Origin: Hymenobacter canadensis
GTDB taxonomy: Bacteria; Bacteroidota; Bacteroidia; Cytophagales; Hymenobacteraceae
Length of the DNA stretch: 64,000 nucleotides
Reading direction: 5' to 3'
NCBI RefSeq assembly: GCF_027359925.1
Contig: NZ_CP114767.1
Coordinates: forward strand, 2,728,001 to 2,792,000
Part shown: positions 14,709 to 60,177 of the stretch, piece by piece
Numbering within the stretch: the first letter of the stretch is position 1
Layout of the letters: the number at the start of each line of letters is the position of its first letter
Program-made: the position numbers and the translations under genes
Notes under the pieces: generated by a model
Told to the model about the DNA's origin: nothing
What the model saw: the letters and a program-made list of their open reading frames with translations, nothing else
Database searches by the model: none

Positions 14709-14890
14709 GTAGCGCGAACTTTGTAGTTCGCGTCCCCACGCCATCACAACGATACTGTCCTATAATGCCACGAACGGCGCGGGGGCGCGAACTACAAAGT
14801 TCGCGCTACTGCCGCCGTTCCAAACCATACTGTCCCACAGTACCTTGAACGGCGCAGTGGCGAGAACTTTATAGTTCTCGCCACTGCGCC
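14709..14890. repeat. Cluster of three GTAG-type hairpins in a 306-base gene-free gap
   Basis: Element 1 at 14709-14732: GTAG, stem CGCGAACT, loop TTGT, AGTTCGCG. Element 2 at 14786-14809 is the same sequence in inverse orientation. Element 3 at 14851-14890 is a longer hairpin (18-base stem, core GGCGAGAACT, loop TTAT). Strings of the type ATACTGTCC...GAACGGCGC between them repeat directly at about 14751 and 14828. Together they fill the gap between the M28 and TonB-receptor genes. Confidence 0.93.
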
Positions 14891-14944
14891 GTTCACTATT
14901 TAGATATTTTCCAATCAGCTATTTAAATATATTCTAAACAGCCT

Positions 14945-14952
14945 TACCTTTG
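14945..14952 (+). promoter_or_regulatory. -7 promoter box (TACCTTTG) for the TonB-dependent receptor
   Basis: TACCTTTG follows an AT-rich stretch (14893-14940) and ends 42 bases before the ATG at 14995. Confidence 0.7.
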
Positions 14953-14994
14953 CGGCAGAATTCGGCCAACTTCTGGCTGATAACCCTGCTGCAT

Positions 14995-17490
14995 ATGCGT
15001 CGTTCTTCCCTGCTCCTTTCTTCTCTGCTGCTCGCTGGTGGCGCTATTGCCACTCCGGTGGCCGCCGTAGCCAGTCCGCTTCACCTCCGCCACGACGAGC
15101 CCGGCAAGGGCGCCACGCTCACCGGCACCGTGCTCGACCCGACCGGCAAAGCCGTGGAAGGCGTGCTGGTAGCCGTTGGGGAGCGCACGGCCGTGACGGA
15201 CGCGCGCGGCGGGTTTCGCCTCTATGGGCTGCCCGTGGGCGAAGCCACTGTGACGGTGAGCGGCCTAAGCATCCGGCCCATCAGCCAGACCGTAACGCTG
15301 CAGAGCGGGCAGCCGCTGGCGCTCAAGCTCACGATTGAAGAGGCCGTGCAGCAGCTGGCCGGCGTGACGGTGGCGGCCAAGAGCCTGCGCTTTGCGCCCG
15401 AAGTGGATGGCAACACCATCACGGCGGGCAAGAAAAACGAGGTGATTGAGCTGGACAAGCTCGACGCCAACCTGGTGGTGAACAGCGCCCGCCAGGTATT
15501 TGCTAAGGTGCCCGGCGTGACCGTGTGGGAAAGCGACGGCTCGGGCCAGCAGATCAACGTGGCTACCCGTGGCCTCTCGCCCAACCGCAGCTGGGAGTTC
15601 AACACCCGCCAGAACGGCATGGACATCAGCTCCGACCCCATGGGCTACCCGGAGGCCTACTACAACCCGCCGCTGGAAGCCGTGGAGCGCATCCAGATTG
15701 TGCGCGGCGGCGGCTCTTTGCAGTACGGCCCGCAGTTTGGCGGCCTGCTGAACTACGAGCTGAAGCGCGGCCCCAAAGACAAAAAGATTCAGTTTGAAAC
15801 CAGCAACAGCGTGGGCAACAACGGCCTGCTGGGCACCTACAACTCGCTGGGCGGCACCGTGGGCAAGGTGAGCTACTTCGGCTACTACCAGCAGCGCGTG
15901 GGCGGCGGCTGGCGCGACAACTCGGAGTTCAACATCCGCAACTTCCACGGCAACGTGCAGTTTCAGGCCACCGACAAGCTGCGGCTGGGCGCCGAAATCA
16001 GCCACCTCGACTACGAGATTCAGCAGCCCGGCGGCCTGACCGACGAACAGTTCTACAACGGCGACGTGCGCAAAAGCAGCCGCGGCCGCAACTGGTTCAG
16101 CACGCCCTGGACCATCCCAGCCTTCACGGCCGACTACCAGTTTTCGGAGCGCACGCGTCTGAGCCTGAAAACCTTCGGGCTGCTGGGCGAGCGAAACTCC
16201 ATCGGGCTGCCCAGCGGTGTGAGCGTGGCCCTGCCCGACGGCCCCAACCCCACCACCGGCCAGCTCGCCAACCGCCAGCTCGACCGGGACCGGTACCGCA
16301 ACTTGGGCTCGGAGCTGCGCCTGCTCACCGACTACGACCTGCTGGGCCAGCAGCACACGCTGGCCGCCGGCCTGCGCGTAGCGGCCGCCAACCTGGGCCG
16401 CCGCCAGCAAGGCAAAGGCGACACCGGCTCCGACTTCAACCTCGACCTGCAGGCCGCCCGCTACGGCCGCGACCTGAGCTTCCGGACCCGCAACTACGCT
16501 GCCTTCGTGGAGAACATCTTCCGGGTGGGCTCGCGCCTGACCTTCACGCCGGGCGTGCGCCTGGAGGTGATTGACAACCAGGGCCGCGGCTACCTCAGCC
16601 TGAACGCCGACGGCTCCGAGAACCAGATCCGCCAGGACTCGCGCCGCAAGGTGCTGCTCTACGGCGCCGGCGCCGAGCTGCGCGCCACCGACCAGACCAA
16701 CTTCTACGCCAACTATTCGCGCGCTTTCCGCCCCGTCACGTTCGGCGACCTGACGCCGCCGGCCACTTCCGACGTTATCGACCCGAACTTGCAGGACGCC
16801 CGTGGCTTCAATGCCGAGCTGGGCTACCGCGGCAGCTGGAAAAACATCCTCACCTTCGACGTGGACGGCTTCTGGCTGCGCTACGACGACCGGATTGGCA
16901 CCATCCGCCGCTTTGTGCCGGGCAGCACCACCGCCACCCAGCAGTTCCGCACCAACATCGGCACCAGCGTGCACAAGGGCGTGGAAGCCTACGTGGAGCT
17001 GGATCTGGTGCACGCCCTCACCCAGAACTTCGACCTGCCGCACTTTGATGTGTTTGCATCTTCGTCCTTCGTGGATGCCCGCTACACCCAGCTGCGCACC
17101 GCCACGCTCAGCGGCAGCAACCTGCAGGAAGGCGACCTGAAAAACAACCGCGTGGAGTACGCGCCCAAGTACACGCACCGCTTCGGGGCCACGTTTGCCC
17201 ACAAAGGCTTCTCCACGACGGCGCAGCTGACGCGCGTATCGGAGGTGTTCACGGATGCCACCAACACGGTGGAGCCCAACGCCGCCGCCACCACCGGCCG
17301 CGTGCCCGGCTACTCCGTCACCGACGTGTCGGCCACCTACCGCTTCGCCAAGCGCTTCACGGTGCGCGGCGGCCTCAACAACGTGTTCGACAAAAACTAC
17401 TTCACGCGCCGCTCCGGCGGCTACCCCGGCCCCGGCCTGCTGCCCGCCGACGGCCGCACTTGGTTTGCCTCATTCGGCGTGAAGCTGTAA
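14995..17490 (+). CDS. TonB-dependent outer-membrane receptor, FecA-like
   Basis: An 831-residue outer-membrane receptor. Signal peptide of about 25 residues (MRRSSLLLSSLLLAGGAIAT), then a CarboxypepD_reg-like beta-sandwich (about 38-120, LTGTVLDPTGKAVEGVLVAV), a plug domain (about 150-250, with VERIQIVRGGGSLQYGP) and a 22-strand-type barrel ending in Phe-rich GVKL. The plug segment RGLSPNRSWEFN is reminiscent of FecA-type siderophore receptors, so iron-chelate uptake is plausible but not proven. The ATG at 14995 starts the signal peptide. No SusD partner is adjacent. A bidirectional terminator follows. Confidence 0.9.
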   Translation: MRRSSLLLSSLLLAGGAIATPVAAVASPLHLRHDEPGKGATLTGTVLDPTGKAVEGVLVAVGERTAVTDARGGFRLYGLPVGEATVTVSGLSIRPISQTVTLQSGQPLALKLTIEEAVQQLAGVTVAAKSLRFAPEVDGNTITAGKKNEVIELDKLDANLVVNSARQVFAKVPGVTVWESDGSGQQINVATRGLSPNRSWEFNTRQNGMDISSDPMGYPEAYYNPPLEAVERIQIVRGGGSLQYGPQFGGLLNYELKRGPKDKKIQFETSNSVGNNGLLGTYNSLGGTVGKVSYFGYYQQRVGGGWRDNSEFNIRNFHGNVQFQATDKLRLGAEISHLDYEIQQPGGLTDEQFYNGDVRKSSRGRNWFSTPWTIPAFTADYQFSERTRLSLKTFGLLGERNSIGLPSGVSVALPDGPNPTTGQLANRQLDRDRYRNLGSELRLLTDYDLLGQQHTLAAGLRVAAANLGRRQQGKGDTGSDFNLDLQAARYGRDLSFRTRNYAAFVENIFRVGSRLTFTPGVRLEVIDNQGRGYLSLNADGSENQIRQDSRRKVLLYGAGAELRATDQTNFYANYSRAFRPVTFGDLTPPATSDVIDPNLQDARGFNAELGYRGSWKNILTFDVDGFWLRYDDRIGTIRRFVPGSTTATQQFRTNIGTSVHKGVEAYVELDLVHALTQNFDLPHFDVFASSSFVDARYTQLRTATLSGSNLQEGDLKNNRVEYAPKYTHRFGATFAHKGFSTTAQLTRVSEVFTDATNTVEPNAAATTGRVPGYSVTDVSATYRFAKRFTVRGGLNNVFDKNYFTRRSGGYPGPGLLPADGRTWFASFGVKL

Positions 17491-17508
17491 CCGACATTTT
17501 TTCCATCT

Positions 17509-17552
17509 GCAAAAAACACCCGTCTGGCTTGTGCCGGACGGGTGTTTTTTTT
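17509..17552. terminator. Bidirectional intrinsic terminator
   Basis: Stem ACACCCGTCTGGC / TGCCGGACGGGTGT flanked by A-run on the left and an eight-T run on the right, so it can serve both the TonB-receptor gene (+) and the FUSC gene (-). Confidence 0.9.
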
Positions 17553-17588
17553 GCGTTACAGCGCTTCTCAGGGAATTGAGTTAGCGAG

Positions 17589-17709
17589 GTAGAGACGCAC
17601 TATTTTGCGTCTCGCCGTTGCCAGAGGTGCGCTAGCCGACGTGCGTTGCCGGACGTGCGCCAGTGGAGCAACATCAGCAACGACGAGACACAAAATATTG
17701 TGCCTCTAC
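17589..17709. repeat. Inverted pair of GTAG-type hairpins (AGACGCA core)
   Basis: At 17589-17612: GTAG, AGACGCA, loop CTATTT, TGCGTCT. At 17686-17709, on the other strand: GTAG, AGGCACA, short loop, TGTGTCT. The two halves are about 75 bases apart and point toward each other. Confidence 0.9.
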
Positions 17710-17737
17710 TGCTGCACCCGCCCGGTGGGCCGACGCC

Positions 17738-19888
17738 TTATGCCAGCACCTCTTCGGTCAGCTTGCTGATGTCGCCGCTGACTTTCTGGATGAACTCCAG
17801 CTGTTCGGCGAGCTGCGCGTCGGGGGCGGAGGCATCGGGGCGGCGCGTGGTGGGGTCGACGGGGGCGGCATCGGGGGTGGCGGCGGGTTCGGCGGGGTCG
17901 AGGCGGCGCAGGCTGCGGTGAAGGGCCTGCCGGGCCTGGCGCAAGGGCCGCAGCAGCACGCCGGGCTGCTCCGGGCGGGTGCTGCCGGCCAGCAGCCCCG
18001 ACGTAATGGAGGCCACATTCGACGACAGAATATGGTTGAGCACCACAAACTCGTGCACTTCGGTGGGGCGGTGCTGCTTGCCACGCGGCTCCGACATCAT
18101 GCGCTGAAACGCCGCCGCCAGGTTGGCCGAACTGACGTACACGTCTTTGCGGGCCAGCTTGTAGTCGAGCACGGCCACAGGCGAGCCCAGCAGGCTTTCC
18201 TGCAGCGTCTGGAGGTAGCGCAGGTTGGCGCGCAGCACGGCCCGCATGTAGTCCTGCAGCTGGTCACTTTCCCAACGCGGAAACAGCAGGTAGCTGGCCG
18301 CAAACGCCAGCAGGCAGCCCATTATGGTGTCGAGCACGCGCTCCTCCACCACCTGCAGGTAGCCCAAGCCCATGAAGTTGAACAGGATCAGTACGAAGGG
18401 CGTCATGAACGTGACGGCCACGATGTAGTTGCTGCGCGTGAAGCTGAACGAAATCAGCATAAACACGCCCAGCAGCGCCACCAGCACCATCCGGTCGTCA
18501 ATCAGCCACAGCACCAGCCCGCCAATCACGCCGCCCAGCAGCGTGCCCAGCACGCGGTTGATGTTGCGCTTTTTGGTGAGGCTGAAGGCCGGCTTGAGCA
18601 TGTAGGTGATGGTCATGATGATCCAGTAGCTGTGGTGGCCGGGCAGCAGCACCTTGGCCACCACGAAGCCCGCCAAGCAAGCCAGCATCATGCGCACGGC
18701 GTGCCGGAACACCCCGGAGCTGAGCGTGAGATGGTCGCGGAGCTGGGAAAGGCCGAACTGCTGGTGCCCCACGAATTTGCCAAACTCCAGCTCCCGCCCG
18801 GTAACGGTGGGCGCGGCCGGCGCCTTGGCATCGAAGTAGGCCAGGATGTCCTGCAGGCGCTGGGTGAGGTTGCGCAGGTTCACCAGAATCTTTTTGAGCA
18901 CCAAAGTGTGGCCGGGCTGGGCGGGGTTTTCGAGGGCATCGATGCGGGCCTTGAGCTGCTCCAGGCCGGCCGTGAGGTTCACGCGGGCCGTGTGGCCGTG
19001 GTTGGCTTCAATAGCCAGCCCGATACTTTCCAGCTCAGTGGCCATCTGCTCTACCAGCCCGGCAATGGCGTCGAGCACGCCGGTGGCCTCGAAGCGGGCG
19101 TGCAGGGCCGCGTAGTCGAAATACGACACCGTGATGTGCTCGTAGAGGTCCACGGCATCCACGAAGGTGAGCACCAGCCGGCGTCCCGTACCGGTGGATT
19201 CCTTCACCATCTGGCGGGTTTTGAACAGCAGCTCACGCACAGCATCCTGCTTTTCGCTCACGGTCACCTGCTGGGCCATCAGGCGGCGGAAGTCGTCGTC
19301 GAGGCGGGTGCCGGTGCGGTAGAACTCGGCCTTGAGGCGCAGGAAGCCGGCAATGGCCTGCACACACTCACCCAGCGCCTGCTGGGCCGGGCGGTAGGGC
19401 CGGATCTGGTACCACAGCAAACTCACCAGCAGATACCACACGCCGCCGGCCGTCACCTGCAGGACATATTCCAGCAGTTGCGGCAGCGTCAGGCTGCGGT
19501 CCATCATCAGAATGACGAGCAGCAGTCCGGCCGAACCGACGGACGCGGCCCGGTTGCCATAGGCCAGAAACAGCGTGAACACAAAGCTCAGCACTCCGAT
19601 TTCCAGCCCCTGCAGCCAGATGTAGGGTTGCAGCAGGCCCGTAAGCAAGGCCAGGCCCGGCAGCAGCAGAATGCCCGCTAGCATGCCATTGCGGCGGTGC
19701 ACCACCGGCCCCGGCGAGTCGGTGATGCTGATGCAGAGCGCGCCCAGCGCCACTTCCACCCCCACGCCCAGCTGCCCCAGCCAGCCCAGCAGCGCGCCCG
19801 GCAGCAGCACGGCCAGCGTGATGCGCAGCGCATCGGAAAAATCCTGACCGAAGAAGAAGTAGCGGACTTTGCGGGCGTGGGCGTTCAT
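17738..19888 (-). CDS. FUSC-family membrane protein (YccS/aromatic-acid-exporter-like)
   Basis: A 716-residue inner-membrane protein with two blocks of hydrophobic helices (about residues 20-150 and 400-530) and soluble regions of about 150-390 and 540-716. This 6+6 helix layout with a repeated central motif is that of FUSC/YccS proteins, linked to efflux of aromatic acids and similar compounds. The first block includes ALRITLAVLLPGALLGWLG; the second, YWIIMTITYMLKPAFSLTKK, corresponds to the conserved FUSC segment. The ATG at 19888 is the only sensible start. Substrate unknown. Confidence 0.85.
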   Translation of the reverse strand: MNAHARKVRYFFFGQDFSDALRITLAVLLPGALLGWLGQLGVGVEVALGALCISITDSPGPVVHRRNGMLAGILLLPGLALLTGLLQPYIWLQGLEIGVLSFVFTLFLAYGNRAASVGSAGLLLVILMMDRSLTLPQLLEYVLQVTAGGVWYLLVSLLWYQIRPYRPAQQALGECVQAIAGFLRLKAEFYRTGTRLDDDFRRLMAQQVTVSEKQDAVRELLFKTRQMVKESTGTGRRLVLTFVDAVDLYEHITVSYFDYAALHARFEATGVLDAIAGLVEQMATELESIGLAIEANHGHTARVNLTAGLEQLKARIDALENPAQPGHTLVLKKILVNLRNLTQRLQDILAYFDAKAPAAPTVTGRELEFGKFVGHQQFGLSQLRDHLTLSSGVFRHAVRMMLACLAGFVVAKVLLPGHHSYWIIMTITYMLKPAFSLTKKRNINRVLGTLLGGVIGGLVLWLIDDRMVLVALLGVFMLISFSFTRSNYIVAVTFMTPFVLILFNFMGLGYLQVVEERVLDTIMGCLLAFAASYLLFPRWESDQLQDYMRAVLRANLRYLQTLQESLLGSPVAVLDYKLARKDVYVSSANLAAAFQRMMSEPRGKQHRPTEVHEFVVLNHILSSNVASITSGLLAGSTRPEQPGVLLRPLRQARQALHRSLRRLDPAEPAATPDAAPVDPTTRRPDASAPDAQLAEQLEFIQKVSGDISKLTEEVLA

Positions 19889-20032
19889 GAGGAGGCGGAA
19901 TCTGAGAGTATCGAGTATTTAGTAGTGAGTATGTAGCAGTTGAAAACGCTGCAGCACATTCGTTTGCTCAAACTACCACCAGCTGCTTACCAGCTACTCT
20001 ATACTTCATACTTAATACTTCATACTGGACAC
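19889..20032. repeat. Spacer with TATCGAGTATTTAG / ATACTTCATACT-type repeats
   Basis: AT-rich spacer between the FUSC and bestrophin genes. ATACTTCATACTTAATACTT on the right faces GAGTATCGAGTATTTAG on the left. It resembles the degenerate direct and inverted strings seen elsewhere in this window. No gene seen. Confidence 0.5.
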
Positions 20033-21001
20033 TTAATACAGAATATCGTCGATGGGGGCCAGCTTGGGCGGCAGGTGGGTTTCGCCCAGCATTTCGCGCA
20101 GGTCGATTTCGATGGTCCGGCAAATGGCCGTCATCGGCACGTCGTTCATCTCGTTTTCAAACGGATTCTCGCTGCTGTGGCCCACCATCTCGATGATGTA
20201 GAACACCCACGACACCAGCACCGAAAACGGCACCGTCAGCCAGATATGGTCGGGGCCCATCTTCACAAACTCGCCGATAAGGCCCAGCGGCAGCAGCGCC
20301 GCAAAAATCCACACGAATACGAAGCTGTAGAAAGCATACTGGCGCGGAAACGGCGTATTCTTGATTCGCTCGCAGCCGCCCTGCAGGTTGTTGAACTGCT
20401 CGATGCTGGTCATCATGTTCACGTGCTGGAAGTCGTTGAGCAGGCCGCGTTCCTCGCGCAATATCCGCAGGTCGGCGGCTTGCTGGCGCAGCAGGTGCGC
20501 CGAGGGGTTCTGCTTGCGCTGCATGGCCCGGGCCTCGGTGGGGTCCAGAAACGGCGCCACCTGGCTTTCCCAAAGGTCGGGCTGGCGGCGCAGCTGCAGG
20601 CGCAGGGCGTTGGCCCAGGCAATCTGGCGGTACACGAGGCGGCGGTGGCGCAAGCTCAGCTCGGCGCGCGAGGCAGCCGGTGCGTCCACGCCCGGCGCAT
20701 CCACCACCGACGTCACGTATTCCAGCACCTGAATCGACCAAGTGCGGCTGTAGTTTACGATGCCGCCCCACAGCTGCCGCCCCTCCCAGAAACGGTCGTA
20801 GGAGCCGTTGTTTTTGAAGCCGATGTAGAACGACACCGCAATGCCCAGCGTAGCCACCGGCTGCCACGGAATCGACAGCGAATGGAAGCCCACCGGCCCG
20901 TAGATCAGGCAGATCAGCAGCGAATACAGCGTGAACACCAGCAGCCCCTTCCAGGAAAACTTCCAGATGACGCGCCAGCGCAGATTATTACGAACGTACA
21001 T
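20033..21001 (-). CDS. Bestrophin-family (UPF0187) ion channel protein
   Basis: A 322-residue membrane protein with the bacterial bestrophin pattern: N-terminal basic segment MYVRNNLRWRVIWKFSWKGL, a first helix (LLVFTLYSLLICLIYGPVGF), then VATLGIAVSFYIGFKNNGSYDRFWEGRQLWG, which corresponds to the conserved FRxxxSYDRWWEGR-like stretch of the family (given here in parts: SYDRFWEGRQLWG). Later helices lie at about 225-280. The C-terminus retains NPFENEMNDVPMTAICRTIE. Likely an anion or cation channel in the inner membrane. The start ATG ends at 21001. Confidence 0.88.
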   Translation of the reverse strand: MYVRNNLRWRVIWKFSWKGLLVFTLYSLLICLIYGPVGFHSLSIPWQPVATLGIAVSFYIGFKNNGSYDRFWEGRQLWGGIVNYSRTWSIQVLEYVTSVVDAPGVDAPAASRAELSLRHRRLVYRQIAWANALRLQLRRQPDLWESQVAPFLDPTEARAMQRKQNPSAHLLRQQAADLRILREERGLLNDFQHVNMMTSIEQFNNLQGGCERIKNTPFPRQYAFYSFVFVWIFAALLPLGLIGEFVKMGPDHIWLTVPFSVLVSWVFYIIEMVGHSSENPFENEMNDVPMTAICRTIEIDLREMLGETHLPPKLAPIDDILY

Positions 21002-21115
21002 GAAAGAGTAACTGAGTAGTTGAGTAACTGAGTAGAGAGTAGCGGGGAATTGAGTGACTGAGTGGAGCAGGCATTCTGCCTTCCGAAGACTTTACTCATT
21101 TACTCAACTACCCGG
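21002..21115. repeat. Spacer with GAGTAACTGAGTAG-type repeats
   Basis: Several copies of TGAGTAACTGAGTAG and TGAGTGACTGAGTG face the inverse TACTCATTTACTCAACTAC. An inverted array of short direct repeats; no gene. Confidence 0.7.
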
Positions 21116-23083: not shown

Positions 23084-23095
23084 TGGTTGGGGTGA

Positions 23096-24665: not shown

Positions 24666-24671
24666 GTTTGT

Positions 24672-29979: not shown

Positions 29980-30095
29980 GGTAGTAGCAGGCTGAGGGCG
30001 AAGCACTACAAAGAACAGAAAATATTCGGCATGCCGAACAGTGCGACCCGGATGGTGCATCTGAGGAGCAGGTCCTAATCAACGCATCAACAGCT

Positions 30096-30194
30096 CGTCA
30101 TGCAGAGGCGCAGCCGAAGCATCTCGCGTGCTGACGTTGAGTTACCACTCCTGCATTAGCACGCGAGATGCTTCGGCTGCGCATCTGCATGACG
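30096..30194. repeat. GTCAT-type long inverted repeat (GCAGAGGCGCAGCC variant)
   Basis: Left arm CGTCATGCAGAGGCGCAGCC, right arm its near-complement, joined by about 25 bases; arms about 35 bases. Inner hairpin ATGC...GCAT. It sits upstream of the DUF4442 gene and downstream of the DUF3857 gene, where it could cap transcripts. Confidence 0.92.
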
Positions 30195-30210
30195 GTCTGC
30201 CAGCCTGAAA

Positions 30211-32331: not shown

Positions 32332-32403
32332 CCCAGGGCTGAAGCCCTGGGCTAGTCAGCGGTGGGCAATGGGCCCTGCGTAGCCCTGGGCTTCAGCCCG
32401 GGG
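32332..32403. repeat. Inverted pair of foot-tetranucleotide hairpins (CCCAGGGCT core)
   Basis: At 32332-32355 (minus strand): CTAG, CCCAGGGCT, TC, AGCCCTGGG. At 32380-32403 (plus strand): GTAG, CCCTGGGCT, TC, AGCCCGGGG. They are arranged in inverted orientation with a 24-base gap. Confidence 0.92.
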
Positions 32404-41193: not shown

Positions 41194-41341
41194 AAGCGAA
41201 AAGCGGAAGGTGAAACAGGCGAAAGTCAGCGAATATCCGACTTTCCAAGCGAAGCTGCTACATGCTGGAGGGCAAGCAGGTGAAAGACAGTCGCGTGGCG
41301 CCAGGGTTGCACCTGTCCGCCAACATTGCCGCATGGCGCGG

Positions 41342-41349
41342 TATGTTTG
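41342..41349 (+). promoter_or_regulatory. -7 promoter box (TATGTTTG) for the small lipoprotein
   Basis: TATGTTTG matches TAnnTTTG and ends 45 bases before the ATG at 41395; no good -33 TTG at the right distance. Confidence 0.55.
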
Positions 41350-41394
41350 CAACTGCCTTGTCTGCTATTCTTTCCGTTAAGCTATTCTGCCCGT

Positions 41395-41910
41395 ATGAAG
41401 TTTCTTCCATTCCTGTTTTTTGCCGCTACCGCCCTCGTCGCCTGTAAAAAGGACAACGACGCCCCTACCATCGACTTCGGCCCCAACGGCGGCATCACCG
41501 TCCGCGACACATTCAACTACCCCCAAGGCACTACTGATCCTACAGACTGGACGCTGGACGGCATCTGGAATCAGCAGGAGCAGGATCTGTTCAAGGGTTT
41601 GGGGCTGGATCTGAACGTCGCTGCCAGCGGCACGATGTCCCTGCTCAGTGCCTACCCCAATCCGGTAGCCTCTCAAGTGGTGTTCGAATATGAAACGCCG
41701 GTAGCCGTGACGTGCAGCTTTGTGATAGTGGATGACAAGTATCGGGTGGTCAAACCGCTGAAAACATCCATTGTGCAAACCAATACCGGCTTCCACTTCG
41801 ACATGAGCCAGGACTTTCCACCAGGCAAGCGCTACCGACTTTATTACGTGTTCCAGAACGGCCCAACGCTGTACTACAAAGGCCACGGCGACATCAAAGT
41901 CGGGATGTAG
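41395..41910 (+). CDS. Small lipoprotein, unknown function
   Basis: A 171-residue product with a lipoprotein signal (MKFLPFLFFAATALVAC, lipobox LVAC) and then a Gly/Asp-rich, probably beta-sandwich region (FEYETPVAVTCSFVIVDDKY) similar in style to T9SS-type or DUF domains, but no family is certain. Its final stop codon, TAG at 41908-41910, is the last three bases of a GTAG repeat foot. The gene stands alone on the + strand between the sigma operon and the ALDH gene. Confidence 0.72.
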   Translation: MKFLPFLFFAATALVACKKDNDAPTIDFGPNGGITVRDTFNYPQGTTDPTDWTLDGIWNQQEQDLFKGLGLDLNVAASGTMSLLSAYPNPVASQVVFEYETPVAVTCSFVIVDDKYRVVKPLKTSIVQTNTGFHFDMSQDFPPGKRYRLYYVFQNGPTLYYKGHGDIKVGM

Positions 41911-42031
41911 CATAGGCTTCAGCCCGTAGTGACTTACGCCTCGAGTAAAAGCAGAAGGCCGCCATCTGGTTGATGGCGGCCTTTTGCTTTGTGTAACTAC
42001 GCAGTCCGGCACAGGCTGAAGCCTATGCTAC
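41907..42031. repeat. Inverted pair of GTAG-type hairpins (CATAGGCT core)
   Basis: 41907-41926 (plus): GTAG, CATAGGCT, TC, AGCC...; 42010-42031 (minus): GTAG, CATAGGCT, TC, AGCCTGTG. They point at each other with a terminator hairpin (41962-41988) between them. The first supplies the stop codon of the upstream gene. Confidence 0.92.
41961..41993 (+). terminator. Intrinsic terminator of the small lipoprotein gene
   Basis: Stem AAGGCCGCCAT / ATGGCGGCCTT with a 7-base loop, then TTTGCTTT. Confidence 0.85.
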
Positions 42032-47067: not shown

Positions 47068-47288
47068 GTAGCATAGGCTTCAGCCTGTGCCCGTTAGCGA
47101 ATATTGTTGTGCGGCTGTTGCGCAGTGCCTTCGTTCAGGTGATGATGAGGCTCGTAGCGCGAATTATGCAATTCGCACTACGGAACGATAATCGGTACAA
47201 CGTAGTGTAGCGCGAACTACGCAGCTCGCGCTACACTATGGTAGTCACCTCAACTCTATGGGCCGGCACAGGCTGAAGCCTATGCTAC
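47068..47288. repeat. Nest of four GTAG-type hairpins
   Basis: 47068-47089 (plus): GTAG, CATAGGCT, TC, AGCCTGTG. 47154-47177 (plus): GTAG, CGCGAATT core. 47204-47237: longer hairpin AGTGTAGCGCGAACT / AGCTCGCGCTACACT. 47267-47288 (minus): GTAG, CATAGGCT, TC, AGCCTGTG. The outer two form an inverted pair; the middle two belong to the TAGCGCGAA family. The last overlaps the end of the M20 gene. Confidence 0.93.
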
Positions 47289-49820: not shown

Positions 49821-49823
49821 AAC

Positions 49824-49860: not shown

Positions 49861-49878
49861 CTGCGGCTTGTGGCGGCC

Positions 49879-53286: not shown

Positions 53287-53322
53287 GCTGTTATTTTTAA
53301 ACTGAAACGCCGGGGCGTACCT

Positions 53323-53330
53323 CAAATTTA
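53323..53330 (-). promoter_or_regulatory. -7 promoter box (TAAATTTG) for secA
   Basis: Minus strand reads TAAATTTG, about 36 bases before the secA ATG; no clear -33 TTG. Confidence 0.55.
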
Positions 53331-53387
53331 CAGTGTTTTCCGGGATTCTCCCGGTGAAATACCGTAAACGCGCCGCCCCGGACCCCA

Positions 53388-53434
53388 AAACGACAAACCC
53401 CGCATCCTCAAAGAGTGTGCGGGGTTTGTCGTTT
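53388..53434 (-). terminator. Hairpin downstream of glf, possible terminator
   Basis: AAACGACAAACCCCGCA and TGCGGGGTTTGTCGTTT form a perfect 17-base stem with a 13-base loop; T-rich end on both strands. It lies between the glf stop and the secA promoter. Confidence 0.8.
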
Positions 53435-53456
53435 CGGATTTGTTGTCAGGAAATCA

Positions 53457-53560
53457 TTTGTCATCCTGAGCGGAGCGAAGGACCCTATCACGGCTGGATT
53501 ACTACCCGGCGACGTTGCTCTTACGTGATAAGATCCTTCGCTCCGCTCAGGATGACAAAA
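53457..53560. repeat. GTCAT-type long inverted repeat (CTGAGCGGAGCGAAGG variant)
   Basis: Left TTTGTCATCCTGAGCGGAGC and right its complement (GCTCCGCTCAGGATGACAAA), arms about 36 bases, spacer about 30. Inner hairpin ATCCT...AGGAT. Confidence 0.92.
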
Positions 53561-53566
53561 GTAACC

Positions 53567-54748
<1,182 letters not shown>

Positions 54749-54794
54749 AACGTACGGGTGTTGTGGTTGGTAGGAGGATTCGGAAAGGGAATTT

Positions 54795-56027
54795 TCAGGT
54801 AGTAGCGAGCGGAACAGCAGGCACTTTGGCGTGCAGGCGGGCATGCATCAGGTCCAGCATCTGCTGCCAGGTCTGGTCCCAGGAAATGGTGGCGAGGTAG
54901 TCGTCGGTGCGCTGGCGCCAGTCGGCGTCCTGGGTCTGCGTCAGGGCCTTTTCAATGGCCTGGCCGAAATCAGCGGCGTTATCAGCAATGTACACGAGGT
55001 TCAGCTCGCCGTAGGGGCGCACCACGTCGCGGATGGGCGTGCTGACCACCGGGCGGCCGGCGGCCAGGTATTCGGGCGTTTTGGTGGGCGAAATGAACTT
55101 GGTGCTTTCGTTGTCGGCGAAGAGCAGCGTGGCCACCTCCCAGCCCTGCAGGTAAGCGGGCAGCTCCTGGTAATCTTTGCCGCCGAGGTAGTGCACGTTG
55201 GCCTGCTGCGGCAGCGTAGCCGCGTCAATCTTCACCACGGGCCCGATAATGACAAACTGCCACTCGGGGTGCGCGTCGGCCAGCTCACCCAGCAGCGCAA
55301 TGTCCAGCCGCTCATCCACCACGCCGAAGAACCCGATGCGCGGATGCGCAATACCGGCCTGGTCGGCGGGCTCGGGCATGGCCTGGCGGGCCTGGCCGAA
55401 GTGGGCCTTGTCGATGCTGCTGGGGAAAGGGTGCGCGTCGGGGTGCTGCTGGCGCTTGGCTTCGTAGAGCGTGTGGCCGCCCGTGAACACCAGCTCGGCC
55501 TTCTCGAACAGCTCCTGCTCCCGCTCTCGCAACTGCGGCGGGGCAAACTTGAAAGCCGCCAGCTCGTCCATGCAGTCGTACACGGTCAGCACGGGCTTGA
55601 AGAAGCGCGACTTGCCCAGCGCCATCGGCGTGTAGTACCAGAACACGTACCGGTCCACACCCTGCTCGTCGAAGTAGCGGCTGAGGACCTCGAACTGGGT
55701 CTGGTTGGCCACGGCTTCGTCGGCGCGCAGCTTGTGCGGCAGATGCACGACCAGCACCTTGAGGCCCTGCTGACGCTCTTTCACTTCCAGGTGCGGCTCA
55801 ATGAGGTCGTCGGCGTGATAGAAGGCGTCTTCTACGTAGAACACCCGGCCATATTGGGCAAAGCGCGAAAGCAAATGCTGCGGGCGCTGCCACACAAAAT
55901 CCCAGTGTAAGTGCGCAAAACACACTAAATCGGGCAGAGAGTAAGCAACGGTGGCGTTAGTAGTTGTAGGGGTAGCGGCAGAGATGGAGGCGCACGCATC
56001 CAACTCCGCTGGTGTGGTCAGCGGCAT
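54795..56027 (-). CDS. GT-B-fold glycosyltransferase
   Basis: A 410-residue glycosyltransferase. Its N-terminal part begins after about 35 residues with LPDLVCFAHLHWDFVWQRPQ, the donor side has RIGFFGVVDERLDIALLGEL, and the C-terminal domain includes TKFISPTKTPEYLAAGRPVV, the Glu-containing signature of retaining GT4-like enzymes. It probably adds a sugar to a surface glycan; glf (galactofuranose supply) lies 46 bases downstream. The ATG at 56027 (MPLTTPAELDACASISA) is preferred over the longer reading to 56087. The substrate is unknown. Confidence 0.85.
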   Translation of the reverse strand: MPLTTPAELDACASISAATPTTTNATVAYSLPDLVCFAHLHWDFVWQRPQHLLSRFAQYGRVFYVEDAFYHADDLIEPHLEVKERQQGLKVLVVHLPHKLRADEAVANQTQFEVLSRYFDEQGVDRYVFWYYTPMALGKSRFFKPVLTVYDCMDELAAFKFAPPQLREREQELFEKAELVFTGGHTLYEAKRQQHPDAHPFPSSIDKAHFGQARQAMPEPADQAGIAHPRIGFFGVVDERLDIALLGELADAHPEWQFVIIGPVVKIDAATLPQQANVHYLGGKDYQELPAYLQGWEVATLLFADNESTKFISPTKTPEYLAAGRPVVSTPIRDVVRPYGELNLVYIADNAADFGQAIEKALTQTQDADWRQRTDDYLATISWDQTWQQMLDLMHARLHAKVPAVPLATT

Positions 56028-56198
56028 AAACAGAAAGCGAGAATGAGTAATCGGGGCACGGGTTTCTACTGAAAGATTCCGCCTCAACGACCTGCCGGCC
56101 CCTGCTGACTATACGCCCGATTATTTAAAAGGATATTGCCGAGCTAACACTAAGGTATTTGGCATAGTTCAACTAAATTCACTAGTTCCGCAGCCGGC

Positions 56199-56714
56199 TC
56201 ACAGCAGCAGCTGCATTTCTACGGCATCCTGCCAGCCGTCGGCCCGGCGCAGCCATTGGCGGCGGGTACCTACGGCGCCAAAACCAGCCGCCATAAACAG
56301 CTGAAGGCTAGCCGTATTATCGGCCGAAATGGTGCAGTGCAGCTGGTGCAGCCGCAACACCTGCCGGGCGTAGGGCTGCACCAGCTGCAGCGCGGCCTGC
56401 GCATAGCCCTGCCGGCGCTGGCTGGCCAGCACCACAATGCCCACCCCGGCCCGCTGGTGCAGCGGCTCAAACCCGAATATATCGACGGTTCCCACGGCCG
56501 CGCCGGTGGCGGTGGCGCACAGCACCAGCCGCAACTGCCGCACCTCGTGGAAGTCGGTGGCGGCGCTATCGAGGTACTGCCGCAGGGTGTAGCGCGACAC
56601 GGGGGCCAGCGTGTCGGACACGCTCCAGACCGCGGGGTCGTTTTCCAGCGCGTACAGGAAGTCGAGGTCGTCGGCTTCGAGGGGGCGCAGGAATACGAGG
56701 TCAGAATGGAGCAT
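56199..56714 (-). CDS. GNAT-family N-acetyltransferase (RimJ/RimL-like)
   Basis: A 171-residue acetyltransferase. The acetyl-CoA-binding region is GVGIVVLASQRRQGYAQAAL, where QRRQGYA is the R/Q-x-x-G-x-A/G motif, followed by TISADNTASLQLFMAAGFGA. Typical GNAT size and order; the protein or small-molecule substrate is not known. The ATG at 56714 is used. Confidence 0.88.
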   Translation of the reverse strand: MLHSDLVFLRPLEADDLDFLYALENDPAVWSVSDTLAPVSRYTLRQYLDSAATDFHEVRQLRLVLCATATGAAVGTVDIFGFEPLHQRAGVGIVVLASQRRQGYAQAALQLVQPYARQVLRLHQLHCTISADNTASLQLFMAAGFGAVGTRRQWLRRADGWQDAVEMQLLL

Positions 56715-56722
56715 AACGGAGG

Positions 56723-56890
56723 CCTCACCCCCTAACCCCCTCTCCGATGGAGAGGGGGAACTAGCTGATAGGTTCTTCTAGAGCTAGTTCCCCTCCTTTT
56801 ACAAGGAGACGGTTGGGGTGGTTGAAAATGACAGAATGGTTTTTCAAACTAGTTCCCCCTCTCTTTTGGAGAGGGGGCCAGGGGGTGAGG
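56723..56890. repeat. CCTCACCCCCTAACCCCCTC-type inverted repeat
   Basis: Left arm CCTCACCCCCTAACCCCCTC with its own GAGAGGGGG hairpin, right arm the complement (GGCCAGGGGGTGAGG). A middle part has a related, inverted copy (AGCTAGTTCCCCTCC). A related piece at 57827-57874 has been inserted into another repeat. Confidence 0.88.
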
Positions 56891-56895
56891 TCCGG

Positions 56896-56917
56896 CACAG
56901 GCTAAAGCCTATGCTAC
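56896..56917 (-). repeat. GTAG-type hairpin overlapping the dapF stop codon
   Basis: On the minus strand: GTAG, CATAGGCT, TT, AGCCTGTG. Bases 56909-56911 are the dapF TAG stop. Confidence 0.9.
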
Positions 56918-57712
56918 ATCTATTCTTCCCTCAAACACCCGCGTGGCGGGGCCGATGAGGTAGACGTGCTGGAACGAGCCGTCGGGCTGGGTCTGGAAGG
57001 TTACGCGCAGGTCGCCGCCGGGGGTGCGCAGGTGCACGGGGCTGGTGGCGCCGTGCTGCGAAGCGGCCAGCGCCACGGCCGTGACGCCGGTGCCGCAGCT
57101 CAGGGTTTCGTCTTCCACGCCCCGCTCGTAGGTGCGCACCTGCCAGGGCTGGCCGGGCGCGGCGGGCGCCTCCACGAAGTTGATGTTGGTGCCTTTCTCG
57201 CGGAACAGCTCGCCGTAGCGGATAGCGCGGCCTTCGGCAAACACGTTCAGCTCGGCCAGCGTGCCGGCTGCCTGCAGACGCACCACGTGCGGCGAGCCGG
57301 TATCGAGGAACACGCCCAGGTTTTCCAACTCCTGCTGCCCGGCTACGTCCTGCATGCGCAGGTGTACGGTACCGTCGGCGTCGATGCGGGCTTCGTGGGG
57401 GCCGTCGGCGGCCAGGAAGCGGGTTTCGGTTTCGATGACGCCCAACTGCCGGGCAAAGGCCACGGTGCAGCGCCCGCCGTTGCCGCACATCGAGCCCAGG
57501 TGGCCGTCGGCGTTGAAATACACCATCTCGAAATCATACTCCGGGTGGTTGCGCAGCAGAATCAGGCCATCGGCGCCGATGCCGCGGCGCCGGTCGCAGA
57601 GGTGGCGCACCAGCGCGTGGTCGGCGGCATCGAAGGTTTCGGCGCGGTCGTCCAGCATCACGAAGTCGTTGCCGGTGCCCTGGTATTTGTGGAAGTGCAG
57701 CGTGGTGCTCAT
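56909..57712 (-). CDS. dapF: Diaminopimelate epimerase
   Basis: A 267-residue enzyme that interconverts LL- and meso-diaminopimelate for lysine and peptidoglycan synthesis. Both catalytic Cys are present: SMCGNGGRCTVAFA (first Cys) and ETLSCGTGVTAVAL (second Cys), along with KYQGTGNDFVMLDD at the N-terminus. The ATG at 57712 has a TACCTTTG box 4 bases upstream, so the mRNA is probably leaderless. Its last codons, GTA GCA TAG, come from a GTAG-type repeat. The methyltransferase gene is divergent. Confidence 0.95.
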   Translation of the reverse strand: MSTTLHFHKYQGTGNDFVMLDDRAETFDAADHALVRHLCDRRRGIGADGLILLRNHPEYDFEMVYFNADGHLGSMCGNGGRCTVAFARQLGVIETETRFLAADGPHEARIDADGTVHLRMQDVAGQQELENLGVFLDTGSPHVVRLQAAGTLAELNVFAEGRAIRYGELFREKGTNINFVEAPAAPGQPWQVRTYERGVEDETLSCGTGVTAVALAASQHGATSPVHLRTPGGDLRVTFQTQPDGSFQHVYLIGPATRVFEGRIDVA

Positions 57713-57716
57713 GGGG

Positions 57717-57724
57717 CAAAGGTA
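57717..57724 (-). promoter_or_regulatory. -7 promoter box (TACCTTTG) for dapF
   Basis: Minus strand reads TACCTTTGCCCC, then ATG. Only four bases separate the box from the start codon. Confidence 0.7.
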
Positions 57725-57742
57725 CGAAGGGGGGGATGAGGT

Positions 57743-57774
<32 letters not shown>

Positions 57775-57782
57775 AAGTAAGA

Positions 57783-57940
57783 ACGTCATTCCGAGCTTGC
57801 GAGGAATCTCGCGTGCTGACGTTAGCCTCACCCCCCGGCCCCCTCTCCCGTGGAGAGGGGGAGCCAGACGAGTTTTTTTGTGAGCCTGCTTCCTGGTGAT
57901 TTCCACACTGCCGAGATTCCTCGCTCCACTCGGAATGACG
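57783..57940. repeat. GTCAT-type inverted repeat with another repeat nested in it
   Basis: Left arm from 57783 (ACGTCATTCCGAGCTTGCGA) and right arm to 57940 (GATTCCTCGCTCCACTCGGA, then ATGACG). The middle 57827-57874 is a CCTCACCCC...GGAGAGGGGGAGCC piece like 56723-56890. This is one repeat inserted into another. The gap between dapF and the methyltransferase gene (57713-58023, 311 bases) is filled by these repeats and two opposed promoters. Confidence 0.88.
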
Positions 57941-58010
57941 ACCTTTTACTTTTCACCTGTCACTTCATCACCTCATCACGATTCACCTCATCACCTCATA
58001 ACCCCCTTCG

Positions 58011-58018
58011 TACCTTTG
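58011..58018 (+). promoter_or_regulatory. -7 promoter box (TACCTTTG) for the methyltransferase gene
   Basis: TACCTTTG ends 5 bases before the ATG at 58024. Confidence 0.7.
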
Positions 58019-58023
58019 CAGGC

Positions 58024-58908
58024 ATGTACACCTTCCTGACCACGAGCCCCTGGGCCGACTACGAGCTGATTGACGCCGGCAACTTCGAGAAACTGGAGCG
58101 TTTTGGCCAGCACATTCTGGCCCGGCCCGAGCCCCAAGCCATCTGGGACCCGCACCTGCCGGCCTCGGAATGGCAGCGCGCCAACGCCACGTTCAACCGC
58201 GAAAAGGGCAGCCAGGAGCGCGGGCAGTGGAAAATCAAGCCCGGCACGCCTGAGCAGTGGCTGATCGGCTACGAGCGGCCCGACGGCCTGAAGCTGCGGT
58301 TTCGGCTGGGCATGTCGTCGTTTAAGCACGTGGGTCTGTTTCCGGAGCAGGACCCCAACTGGCAGTTCATCTACAACCAGACCCGCAAGCGCAAAGCGGC
58401 CGTGCCGCGCGTGCTCAACCTGTTTGCCTACACCGGGGCCGCCACGCTGGCCGCCCGCGCCGCCGGCGCCGACGTTACGCACCTCGACTCGGTGAAGCAG
58501 GTGAATTTCTGGGCCCGCGACAACATGGAGGCCAGCAACCTCGACGGCGTGCGCTGGCTGGTGGAAGACGCCATGAAATATGTGCGGCGCGAGGTGAAGC
58601 GCGGCAGCAAATACCAAGGCCTCATCCTCGACCCGCCCGCCTACGGCCGCGGCCCCAACGGTGAGAAGTGGCAGCTGGAAGACGAGCTCAACGAGATGCT
58701 CAAGCTTTGCAAGGAGCTGCTCGACCCCGAGGACCATTTCTTCCTCGTAAACCTCTATTCATTGGGTTTCTCGGCCCTGATTCTCGACAATCTGGTGGGC
58801 GAAATCTTCCCGGCTATGCGCGACAAGCGCGAAATCGGGGAAATCTACCTGCACGATGCCGCCGCCCGCAAGCTGCCGCTGGGCACGTTCTGCCGCTTCG
58901 CCACGTAG
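58024..58908 (+). CDS. Class I SAM-dependent methyltransferase (RlmI/RlmK-like)
   Basis: A 294-residue methyltransferase. SAM-binding motif I is VLNLFAYTGAATLAARAAGA, motif IV is LILDPPAYGRGPNGEKWQLE (DPPAY, as in RNA m5C/m7G-type rRNA methyltransferases such as RlmI). An N-terminal domain of about 115 residues precedes it. The likely substrate is RNA, but a specific site is not shown. Start 58024 because a TACCTTTG box lies just before it; a longer reading from 57850 would translate repeat DNA. Confidence 0.88.
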   Translation: MYTFLTTSPWADYELIDAGNFEKLERFGQHILARPEPQAIWDPHLPASEWQRANATFNREKGSQERGQWKIKPGTPEQWLIGYERPDGLKLRFRLGMSSFKHVGLFPEQDPNWQFIYNQTRKRKAAVPRVLNLFAYTGAATLAARAAGADVTHLDSVKQVNFWARDNMEASNLDGVRWLVEDAMKYVRREVKRGSKYQGLILDPPAYGRGPNGEKWQLEDELNEMLKLCKELLDPEDHFFLVNLYSLGFSALILDNLVGEIFPAMRDKREIGEIYLHDAAARKLPLGTFCRFAT

Positions 58909-58940
58909 GTGGCTTGGGATACCACAGTTAAAAACCAGCA

Positions 58941-59049
58941 CGTCATTCCGAGCTTGCGAGGAATCTCGCTAGTGTGGAAATCAAGGGGCTCCAACGTCAG
59001 TATACCAGATTCCTCGTCCTTGCTCCAGGCGCAACAGGCCCGGAATGAC
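58941..59049. repeat. Interrupted GTCAT-type inverted repeat
   Basis: Left CGTCATTCCGAGCTTGCGAG at 58941; the right arm is GATTCCTCG at 59008, then an inserted 26-base string, then GGAATGAC. A TACCTCATCACCC string follows at 59079-59091. The right arm has been disrupted. Confidence 0.8.
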
Positions 59050-59097
59050 AGCCGGCCCCTACCCTTCTATTTCTTCATTACCTCATCACCCGAGTCC

Positions 59098-60054
59098 GTG
59101 TCACATCCTCCTTCTCTGCACCGCCGGCTGGCCCTTATTGACATGGGCACCAACACGTTTCACCTGCTGATTGTGGAGCTACCCGAGGCGCGCCACGCGC
59201 AGCCCGTTACGCTGTTGCGCACGAAAGTGGGCGTGCGGCTGGGTGAGGGTGGCATCAGCAAGGGCCAGATTGCACCCGAGCCGTATGCGCGGGCCCTGCA
59301 CACGCTGGCCGGCTTCAAGGAGGAAATGGAGCTGCACCAGGTGACGGACGTGCGCGCCACGGCCACCAGCGCCATGCGCGTGACCAGCAACGGCCCCGAG
59401 CTGGTGAAGGACATATTTGAGCAGACCGGCATTCAGGTGGAAGTCATTGCCGGCGACCGGGAGGCCGAGCTGATCTGCGCTGGCGTGCGCCGGGCCGTGC
59501 CGCTGGGAGCCGAGAAGCACCTGATTATGGACATTGGCGGCGGCTCGGTAGAGTTTATCGTGGCCGATGAAAGCCAGATCTTCTGGAAGCAGAGCTTTGA
59601 AATCGGGGCCCAACGCCTGCTCGATAAGTTCTTTCCGGACCCCAGCGGCGTGTTCCCGCCCGAAGCCGTAGCGGCCGAAAAAGCCTATTTCCAGCAGGTA
59701 CTGGCGCCGCTGGCTGCCGCCGTGGCCGAGTTCCGGCCGGTGGGCCTAGTGGGCGCGTCCGGCTCGTTCGACAGCCTAGCCGACATGCACCTGGGCCGCC
59801 TGCGCGCCGAAGCCGACCTGCCGCCGTCCACGGACCTGCCGCTGGAGAGCTTCCGCCGCAGCCAGCAGCAGCTGCTGAGTTTGCTCCACGAGCAGCGCAA
59901 GGCCCTGCCCGGCATCCTGCCCATGCGCGCCGACATGCTGGTGGTGGCCGTAGTGCTGATCGACTACGTGCTGGAGCTGACCGGCATCACGCACCTGCGC
60001 ACCTCGGCCTACGCCCTCAAGGAAGGGCTGCTGGCCGAAATGCTGGCGTCGTAG
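59098..60054 (+). CDS. Ppx/GppA-family phosphatase
   Basis: A 318-residue member of the exopolyphosphatase/pppGpp phosphatase family. N-terminal ASKHA-fold signature RRLALIDMGTNTFHLLIVEL, the MDIGGGSVEFIVAD loop at about 145-165 and a further GLVGASGSFDSL phosphate loop. It hydrolyses polyphosphate or (p)ppGpp-type phosphates, and its length fits the single-domain Bacteroidota form. The GTG at 59098 is chosen because the next ATG would cut the first strand; longer readings start in repeat DNA. Confidence 0.85.
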   Translation: MSHPPSLHRRLALIDMGTNTFHLLIVELPEARHAQPVTLLRTKVGVRLGEGGISKGQIAPEPYARALHTLAGFKEEMELHQVTDVRATATSAMRVTSNGPELVKDIFEQTGIQVEVIAGDREAELICAGVRRAVPLGAEKHLIMDIGGGSVEFIVADESQIFWKQSFEIGAQRLLDKFFPDPSGVFPPEAVAAEKAYFQQVLAPLAAAVAEFRPVGLVGASGSFDSLADMHLGRLRAEADLPPSTDLPLESFRRSQQQLLSLLHEQRKALPGILPMRADMLVVAVVLIDYVLELTGITHLRTSAYALKEGLLAEMLAS

Positions 60055-60082
60055 CCTGGGCCGTTCCAGCCGCGCGCCGTGC

Positions 60083-60177
60083 CCCAGGGCTGAAGCCCTG
60101 GGCTAGTGAAACTGGCGTATTTGCTCCTTCTTACCGCTTATCTGCTCCACTCCATAGCCCAGGGCTTTAGCCCTGGG
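60083..60177. repeat. Inverted pair of foot-tetranucleotide hairpins (CCCAGGGCT core)
   Basis: 60083-60106 (minus): CTAG, CCCAGGGCT, TC, AGCCCTGGG. 60154-60177 (plus): ATAG, CCCAGGGCT, TT, AGCCCTGGG. Same core as 32332-32403. Confidence 0.92.

What the first reader, a model, noticed from the sequence alone, without database searches (positions are those of the whole stretch)
14709..60177. Several unrelated palindrome families share a GTAG (or xTAG) foot followed directly by a hairpin: REP/REPIN-like elements
At least five core sequences occur (CATAGGCT, CGTAAGCT, CCCAGGGCT, CGCGAACT, AGACGCA), each directly preceded by GTAG, CTAG or ATAG and followed by the complementary strand after a 2-6 base loop. 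Most are in inverted pairs, as in REPINs. A conserved tetranucleotide foot plus hairpin is the recognition structure of RAYT (TnpA-REP) Y1 HUH transposases. The feet and stems can be read directly; that a RAYT acts on them is inference. Unlike E. coli, one window has many different cores on one foot, which would mean several RAYT specificities or one relaxed enzyme.
Basis: partly seen in the sequence, partly recalled or inferred. Interest (0 to 1): 0.85.

Follow-up and report, generated by a model that had tools for sequence, protein, structure and literature searches.

The report
REP repeats with several matching transposases
The window holds real families of tiny hairpin repeats of the REP kind, and at least one family is tied not to the usual REP transposase but to a different, IS200-like enzyme that was recorded as having no such repeats.

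Summary
The window (Hymenobacter-like, GC about 62%) holds four families of foot-plus-hairpin repeats; CATAGGCT and CGTAAGCT are one. Three were counted genome-wide: GTAGCATAGGCT 54 exact copies (reversed control 2), GTAG-CGCGAACT hairpin 61 (control 0), TAG-CCCAGGG hairpin 34 (control 0). Most window copies lie in inverted pairs. Where a Y1 HUH enzyme was found, it differs from family to family, against one relaxed enzyme. AGACGC surrounds a RAYT-like gene in this genome. CGCGAACT flanks RAYT genes in nine related genomes; none was found here. CATAGGCT has no partner here; sister repeats flank RAYTs elsewhere. The surprise is CCCAGGG: the base before TAG is free, and CT lies five bases upstream of TAG in 33 of 34 copies. 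Its enzyme is not a RAYT but an IS200-like protein with the key motifs of TnpA-Y1 subclass 1.2, listed in the 2018 classification as "REP: no". Of 80 relatives from many phyla, 32 carry strict TAG-foot hairpins beside the gene (70 hairpins, against 4 in 205 control blocks). Binding, cleavage and mobility are inferred. No clean empty site was found.

The parts
10939..11029 (.). Degenerate pair of the CATAGGCT/CGTAAGCT family, GTAG feet outward (10939 +, 11029 -)
   Evidence: not shared with the sister genome G080
14709..14732 (+). CGCGAACT repeat: GTAG foot 14709-14712, hairpin CGCGAACT-TTGT-AGTTCGCG
   Evidence: 61 strict matches genome-wide
14786..14809 (-). Inverted partner of the CGCGAACT repeat, GTAG foot outward
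14846..14895 (.). 23-bp perfect palindrome; degenerate double-foot copy of the CGCGAACT family by comparison with G080
17589..17612 (+). AGACGC repeat: GTAG foot, hairpin AGACGCACTATTTTGCGTCT
32332..32355 (-). CCCAGGG repeat, CTAG foot inward, CT five bases upstream of TAG
32380..32403 (+). Partner CCCAGGG-type repeat (imperfect stem here, perfect in G080), GTAG foot
41907..41928 (+). CATAGGCT repeat (3' arm decayed here, intact in G080), GTAG foot
42010..42031 (-). Inverted partner CATAGGCT repeat, GTAG foot outward
47068..47089 (+). CATAGGCT repeat, GTAG foot
47154..47181 (.). Double-foot CGCGAA-type palindrome
47207..47234 (.). Double-foot CGCGAACT-type palindrome
47267..47288 (-). Inverted partner CATAGGCT repeat, GTAG foot outward
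56896..56917 (-). Single CATAGGCT repeat, GTAG foot
60083..60106 (-). CCCAGGG repeat, CTAG foot inward (the one of 34 copies without CT at the fixed place)
60154..60177 (+). CCCAGGG repeat, ATAG foot

Best explanation
These are four populations of REP/REPIN-type repeats, each most likely spread by its own Y1 HUH enzyme that recognises its hairpin and foot in single-stranded DNA. Three families (CATAGGCT/CGTAAGCT, CGCGAACT, AGACGC) have a GTAG foot and belong with class-2 RAYT enzymes; for AGACGC the gene is in this genome, for CGCGAACT it is in relatives, and for CATAGGCT the link rests on sister repeats in relatives, so these last two are probably relics here. The fourth (CCCAGGG) is served by a different lineage, the IS200-like TnpA-Y1 subclass 1.2. 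Its unit reads CT-NNN-TAG-CCCAGGG(C/T)TTYA(G/A)CCCTGGG. I infer that TAG guides the enzyme and that the fixed CT is its C|T cleavage site, as for characterised TnpA-REP. Shown: families, copy numbers, gene-repeat linkage, enzyme class, the CT position. Inferred: binding, cleavage, copying.
For: Copy numbers. CCCAGGG: gene L001 has xTAG-CCCAGGG hairpins on both sides, as do six further loci with both flanks examined (L024, L026, L027, L029, L033, L034); G060 and G087 were not examined that way. The gene is at least 83% identical in 9 of 101 genus genomes and sits between the same two genes, the downstream one not held for G060. All 9 have the strict repeat, against 15 of 92 without the gene (Fisher 6e-7, relatedness not corrected). 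AGACGC: two hairpins on each side of RAYT-like L192 and one inside its frame, each with a GTAG foot, and four around L191 in G080. CGCGAACT: 8 of the 30 best RAYT loci carry it, five on both sides and three on one side, plus the frame-broken G080 gene with six copies. Enzyme class of L001: NCBIfam; best PDB match 2xm3 at 5.5e-17, no E. coli RAYT among the 8 matches at 0.001; tree split from six class-2 rows at 100/100. Motifs DHVH, WQ, YIRNQEKHH fit Table 1 for subclass 1.2. CT at the fixed place in 33 of 34. Stem pair 8: 27 C-G, 7 T-A, 0 mixed. Other phyla: 70 strict TAG-hairpins at 32 of 80 loci against 4 in 205 control blocks.
Against: No clean empty site: 7 of 8 window sites are shared with sister genome G080; in 8 further gaps aligned, three lack the repeat in G080 and five keep at least one half, none with precise ends. 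15 genomes have CCCAGGG repeats without the gene, four of them with other subclass 1.2 genes. In 18 genomes lacking the gene its gap holds no CCCAGGG and is otherwise unlike the occupied one. CATAGGCT has no partner gene in either genome where it is abundant. The CT is a Hymenobacter feature: among the relatives' hairpins GA is commonest there (22 of 70) and CT is 5 of 70, four of those in the Hymenobacter locus. L192 is below the RAYT cut-off (57.8 against 80) and has no Pfam hit. Nothing biochemical was measured.
Confidence: 0.8

Rival explanations
1. Ordinary multi-RAYT genome: all four families, CCCAGGG included, are moved by class-2 RAYTs (as in Stenotrophomonas), and the subclass 1.2 gene merely sits among CCCAGGG repeats.
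For: Species with several GTAG families and repeat-specific REPtrons are described (PMC3733652, passages and section 5). Three of the four families here fit RAYTs directly or through sister repeats.
Against: CCCAGGG hairpins flank the subclass 1.2 gene on both sides in all seven loci examined for it. No CCCAGGG hairpin was printed beside the 38 class-2 genes found, and none was found in the 50 loci scanned. Other subclass 1.2 branches have other flanking hairpins, and other phyla show the same TAG-hairpin type.
Confidence: 0.1
2. Independent selection as terminators or mRNA-stabilising hairpins; the enzymes are incidental.
For: Most sites lie at gene ends or between ORFs (judged by eye); REPs are hypothesised to act in termination and mRNA stabilisation (abstract of PMC3733652).
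Against: Does not explain the exact foot, the fixed CT (33 of 34), the inverted pairs or the matching enzymes. No Rfam family reached its gathering score in the window.
Confidence: 0.06
3. Fragments of an IS200/IS605 insertion sequence (class 1.1) rather than a domesticated REP system.
For: The enzyme scores above the IS200/IS605 cut-off in NCBIfam, its best PDB match is an IS200-type transposase, and class 1.1 rows fell inside subclass 1.2 in one tree.
Against: One gene per genome at one conserved locus, near-identical hairpins on both sides as inverted pairs, repeats far outnumbering the gene. Class 1.1 copies in the genus can be multi-copy (G050 five places of equal score).
Confidence: 0.04

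Closest known systems
GTAG-tagged REP families with RAYT / REPtrons (PMC3733652; TnpA-REP biochemistry, PMC8266576)
   Same: GTAG foot, stems mostly 6-9 bp, short loops, inverted dimers, several families in one genome with repeat-specific REPtrons
   Different: CCCAGGG has a free base before TAG, a fixed CT five bases upstream, and an IS200-like enzyme; for CATAGGCT and CGCGAACT no enzyme was found in this genome
TnpA-Y1 subclass 1.2 (PMC6006769)
   Same: DH[IV]H, WQ and Y---Q--HH motifs, about 148 aa, low copy number, Bacteroidetes among hosts
   Different: Table 1 lists REP as 'no' and the text says generally without typical IS200 hairpins; here REP-like hairpin arrays flank the gene, and relatives lie in more phyla
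TnpA-Y1 class 3 (PMC6006769)
   Same: Class-1-like Y motif with REPtron-like flanking hairpins, in Planctomycetes and Acidobacteria
   Different: Class 3 has Y----Q and NHVH and is described with a CnGA foot; the proteins here have Y---Q--HH and DHVH
IS200/IS605 TnpA (IS608, ISDra2; names of the PDB entries partly recalled)
   Same: Best solved structures and NCBIfam model
   Different: Gene is single-copy and at one conserved locus, flanked by near-identical hairpin pairs

Membership tests
GTAG REP superfamily (CATAGGCT, CGCGAACT, AGACGC) | 20-40 bp palindrome with unpaired GTAG at one end | tested here: met
   CGCGAACT 13 of 13 GTAG with the first base left free by the pattern; AGACGC GTAG 17 of 36 readings over both strands of each palindrome; CATAGGCT copies were selected by a pattern that includes GTAG, so its conservation was not measured
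GTAG REP superfamily (CCCAGGG) | GTAG conserved in most members | tested here: not met
   GTAG in 13 of 34; first base free
REPIN | Dispersed multi-copy units in inverted pairs | tested here: met
RAYT-associated (AGACGC) | RAYT gene flanked by the repeat in the same genome | tested here: met
   L192: two hairpins on each side and one inside the frame; NF047646 57.8 bits, E 1e-15, but below its cut-off of 80
RAYT-associated (CGCGAACT) | RAYT gene flanked by the repeat | tested here: met
   in nine relatives, G080's frame being broken and G076's holding a stop; not in this genome
RAYT-associated (CATAGGCT) | RAYT gene flanked by the repeat | tested here: inconclusive
   only sister repeats flank RAYTs, with GTAG feet in G042, G057, G096 and GTGC/GTGA in G033, G043
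RAYT (enzyme of CCCAGGG) | Class-2 protein: Y---NP motif, NF047646 above cut-off | tested here: not met
   YIRNQEKHH; 30 bits against 80
TnpA-Y1 subclass 1.2 | DH[IV]H, WQ, Y---Q--HH, about 148 aa, low copy | tested here: met
   75 of 80 relatives have Y---Q--HH. Not compared with the original sequences
IS200/IS605 insertion sequence | Multi-copy mobile gene | tested here: not met
   one locus in each of 9 genomes
TnpA-REP mechanism | Single-stranded hairpin binding and C|T cleavage | not testable with these tools
   inferred from PMC8266576 passages

The most novel reading that the evidence does not exclude
TnpA-Y1 subclass 1.2 is a second lineage of REP-mobilising enzymes, on the IS200 side of the Y1 family and separate from RAYTs, spread over Bacteroidota, Verrucomicrobiota, Planctomycetota, Acidobacteriota and other phyla, with its own substrates: a TAG-foot hairpin with a TTYA tip (as in CCCAGGG) in one part, and a hairpin followed by a ...GGTAG tail in another. 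REP domestication would then have happened at least twice, and many orphan REP families would gain an enzyme.
Probability: 0.6. Interest if true: 0.75.

Novelty: new variant of a known kind. Interest (0 to 1): 0.6.

Why it matters
REP repeats are widespread in bacteria and are linked in print to RAYT enzymes. A REP system served by an IS200-like enzyme, with its own foot and a fixed CT, would give a function to an orphan enzyme subclass and offer a natural comparison for how a transposase becomes a single-copy, vertically kept repeat spreader. The CT and foot predictions can be tested directly with oligonucleotides.

Tried and rejected
Rejected: GTAG as a generic strongly over-represented hairpin foot; one relaxed enzyme (different enzymes flank different cores); my first guess of an acidobacterial genome (L198, an 89% identical protein, is from a Hymenobacter record). 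The genus name rests on that record and on gene content; the genome itself is unnamed.

Led nowhere: clean empty sites. A CATAGGCT partner gene by profile A1 at E up to 1 in G000 and G080. A RAYT-like gene at G000:C1:3680303: the six core patterns were not found in the eight loci of that kind fetched, but my hairpin scan recognised the gene in only two of them (L181, L183; none beside it), so its flanks are not settled. Rfam: no match. The tree lacked class 1.1 rows because my extraction failed, and left out four relatives shorter than 120 aa. In one search (34 subclass 1.2 rows, 4 class 1.1, 6 class 2; L192 left out for its long branch) the class 1.1 rows fell inside subclass 1.2 on a long branch, so the place of 1.2 relative to 1.1 is not settled. 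A second Fisher figure printed (4 or more copies) used a wrong count and is not used.

Literature: searches in the open-access library; no listing or passage that I saw ties REPs to subclass 1.2. Subscription papers and preprints were not searched, and one search listed 30 of 713 hits. Seen: PMC6006769 (sections 12, 17, 18, 27 and passages); PMC3733652 (abstract, outline, section 5, passages); PMC8266576 (passages); PMC12306157 (passages). Supplements were not seen. Stenotrophomonas SMAG work is known to me only through those texts and recall.
Full report
What is in the window. The window is G000:C1:2728001-2792000 of a 5.09-Mb, four-contig genome. The best named relative of its L001 protein is from Hymenobacter sp. 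HSC-4F20 (89%), and genus-mates serve as comparison. The feet and hairpins described are present. They fall into four families. CATAGGCT and CGTAAGCT are one: pair 5 is G-C 20, A-T 3, and pair 3 is T.G in 19 of 23, though pair 2 has four mismatches (loci may overlap). Most copies lie between ORFs or at their ends, judged by eye against the ORF list; this was not tested formally.

More than chance? Counted as a generic hairpin foot, GTAG is weak: 5 seen against 2.42 expected in a 400-kb sample and 1 against 0.33 in the window. Counted as families the excess is plain: GTAGCATAGGCT 54 exact copies, reversed control 2; GTAGCGCGAACTNNNNAGTTCGCG 61, control 0 (double-foot copies count on both strands); TAGCCCAGGGYTTYARCCCTGGG 34, control 0. 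AGACGC was counted only in the 400-kb sample, 8 strand hits of AGAGACGCA. CATAGGCT is confined: 56 copies of a longer pattern here, 33 in G080, one or two in nine others, none in 109 of 120 genus genomes. CGCGAACT is in 64 of 101.

Each family and its enzyme. Pfam PF01797 finds four Y1 genes in this genome; profile A1 adds G000:C1:3680303 and, weakly (E 0.004), L192. AGACGC: L192 has two GTAG-foot hairpins on each side and one inside its reading frame; L191 in G080 has four around it. CGCGAACT: of the 30 best RAYT loci, eight carry it. Five have it on both sides (G044, G079, G024, G076, G050; the G076 frame holds a stop) and three on one side only by the strict pattern (G026, G074, G015). The gene in G080 has six copies around it but a broken frame. 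In G000 no such gene was found at E up to 1. CATAGGCT: no partner found in G000 or G080. The sister repeat GGTAAGCTTTAGCTTGCC flanks RAYTs in G042, G033, G043, G057 and G096, with GTAG feet in three and GTGC or GTGA in two. A further family not in the finding, GTAA-CGCGAAG, flanks RAYT L004 here and its relatives in G001 and G091. Where both are found, cores and enzymes match one to one, the known REPtron pattern (PMC6006769 section 12).

The exception. CCCAGGG flanks L001, which is not a RAYT. NCBIfam gives IS200/IS605 58.6 bits (cut-off 55) and RAYT 30 (cut-off 80). The best solved structure is 2xm3, a transposase that I recall as ISDra2 TnpA; the E. coli RAYT entry is not among the eight matches at E 0.001. 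The tree separates it, with class 1.1, from six class-2 rows at 100/100. DHVH, WQ, YIRNQEKHH and 142 aa fit Table 1 of the 2018 classification for subclass 1.2, where the REP column reads 'no'. The gene is found at 83% identity or more in 9 of 101 genomes, between the same two genes wherever both flanks are held (8 of 9). Seven such loci with both flanks examined all have xTAG-CCCAGGG hairpins up and downstream; G060 and G087 were not examined that way. All 9 genomes hold the strict repeat, as do 15 of 92 without the gene (Fisher 6e-7, not corrected for relatedness); four of the 15 have other subclass 1.2 genes (G015, G030, G059, G080). In 18 genomes without the gene, 15 of them with the repeat elsewhere, the same gap is 133-613 bp and holds no TAGCCCAGGG; two more handles searched gave no usable gap.

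Anatomy of CCCAGGG. In all 34 strict units of this genome read out, CT lies exactly five bases before TAG in 33, the base before TAG is free, and stem pair 8 is C-G in 27 and T-A in 7 with no mismatch. The pattern fixed TAG, so TAG conservation itself is not measured there. Adjacent pairs face feet inward in 13 of 14. Characterised TnpA-REP enzymes cut at C|T beside the hairpin and use the foot, at least in one case, to select the site (PMC8266576 passages). The fixed CT therefore looks like the cleavage site; this is inference.

Beyond the genus. Other subclass 1.2 branches in the genus have their own hairpin arrays. In 13 of 14 loci examined, upstream and downstream flanks share 10-mers far above shuffles; L023 shares none although its upstream flank repeats GCCCC...GGGGC (gene ends of L020 and L025 were set roughly, L037 was left out). 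One type, hairpin plus CATATYGGTAG tail, forms dispersed pairs about 120 bp apart (29 of 120 genomes, up to 41 copies, 6 here). Of 80 relatives kept from at least 583 found by sequence alone, 65 had long enough flanks: 35 share a 14-nt or longer repeat across the gene, against 6 of 518 control pairs; some of those are not hairpins. Strict TAG-foot hairpins: 70 at 32 of 80 loci, 23 loci with two or more, against 4 in 205 control blocks; TTCA or TTTA at the tip in 35 of the 42 with 9-bp stem and 2-nt loop. With a looser definition, 83 at 42 loci against 20 in controls, and the GTAG-tail type only 29 at 17 loci against 13, a modest excess. At the place of the Hymenobacter CT these relatives have GA most often (22 of 70). 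Whether their hairpins are dispersed in their genomes was not tested.

Against. Most window sites are shared with the sister genome (7 of 8). In eight gaps elsewhere three lack the repeat in G080 and five keep at least one half, none with clean ends. Many genomes carry repeats without the enzyme. Subclass 1.2 is assigned by motif and model, not by comparison with the original sequences, which were not available.

Verdict. Real REP-type repeats, ordinary for three families, with one family pointing to a REP system outside the RAYTs.

Noticed in passing
window 8837-8932, 30091-30199, 53457-53559: Long inverted repeats with CGTCAT... or TGTCATCCTGAGC... ends; like sequences are frequent in the genome sample. 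They recall the CGTC-tagged superfamily, for which PMC3733652 found no dedicated transposase.
   Followed up: no
window 56736-56877 and 57839-57861: CCCCCTCTCC...GGAGAGGGGG hairpins; copies in the 400-kb sample have a CTAG foot, in the window CTAG lies two bases off or is absent.
   Followed up: no
G000:C1:3680303 (L188) and similar genes: RAYT-like protein with many matches of similar score in the genus and an altered Y motif in those read; no core found beside it by pattern, hairpins checked in two loci only.
   Followed up: partly
L028, L032, L036 flanks; dispersed in G015, G030, G115: Subclass 1.2 branch B: nested hairpin units with near-constant spacing of about 120 bp, like miniature composite elements.
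   Followed up: partly
L004 = G000:C1:4238144: RAYT with its own GTAA-foot CGCGAAGT family; GTAA is the most enriched foot in the genome sample (11 against 0.84), which includes this locus.
   Followed up: partly
L192 = G000:C1:1516545: One AGACGC hairpin lies inside the open frame of its own RAYT-like gene, as described for subclass 2.4.
   Followed up: no
window 41908-41910: The TAG of a GTAG foot is the stop codon of the ORF at 41326-41910.
   Followed up: no
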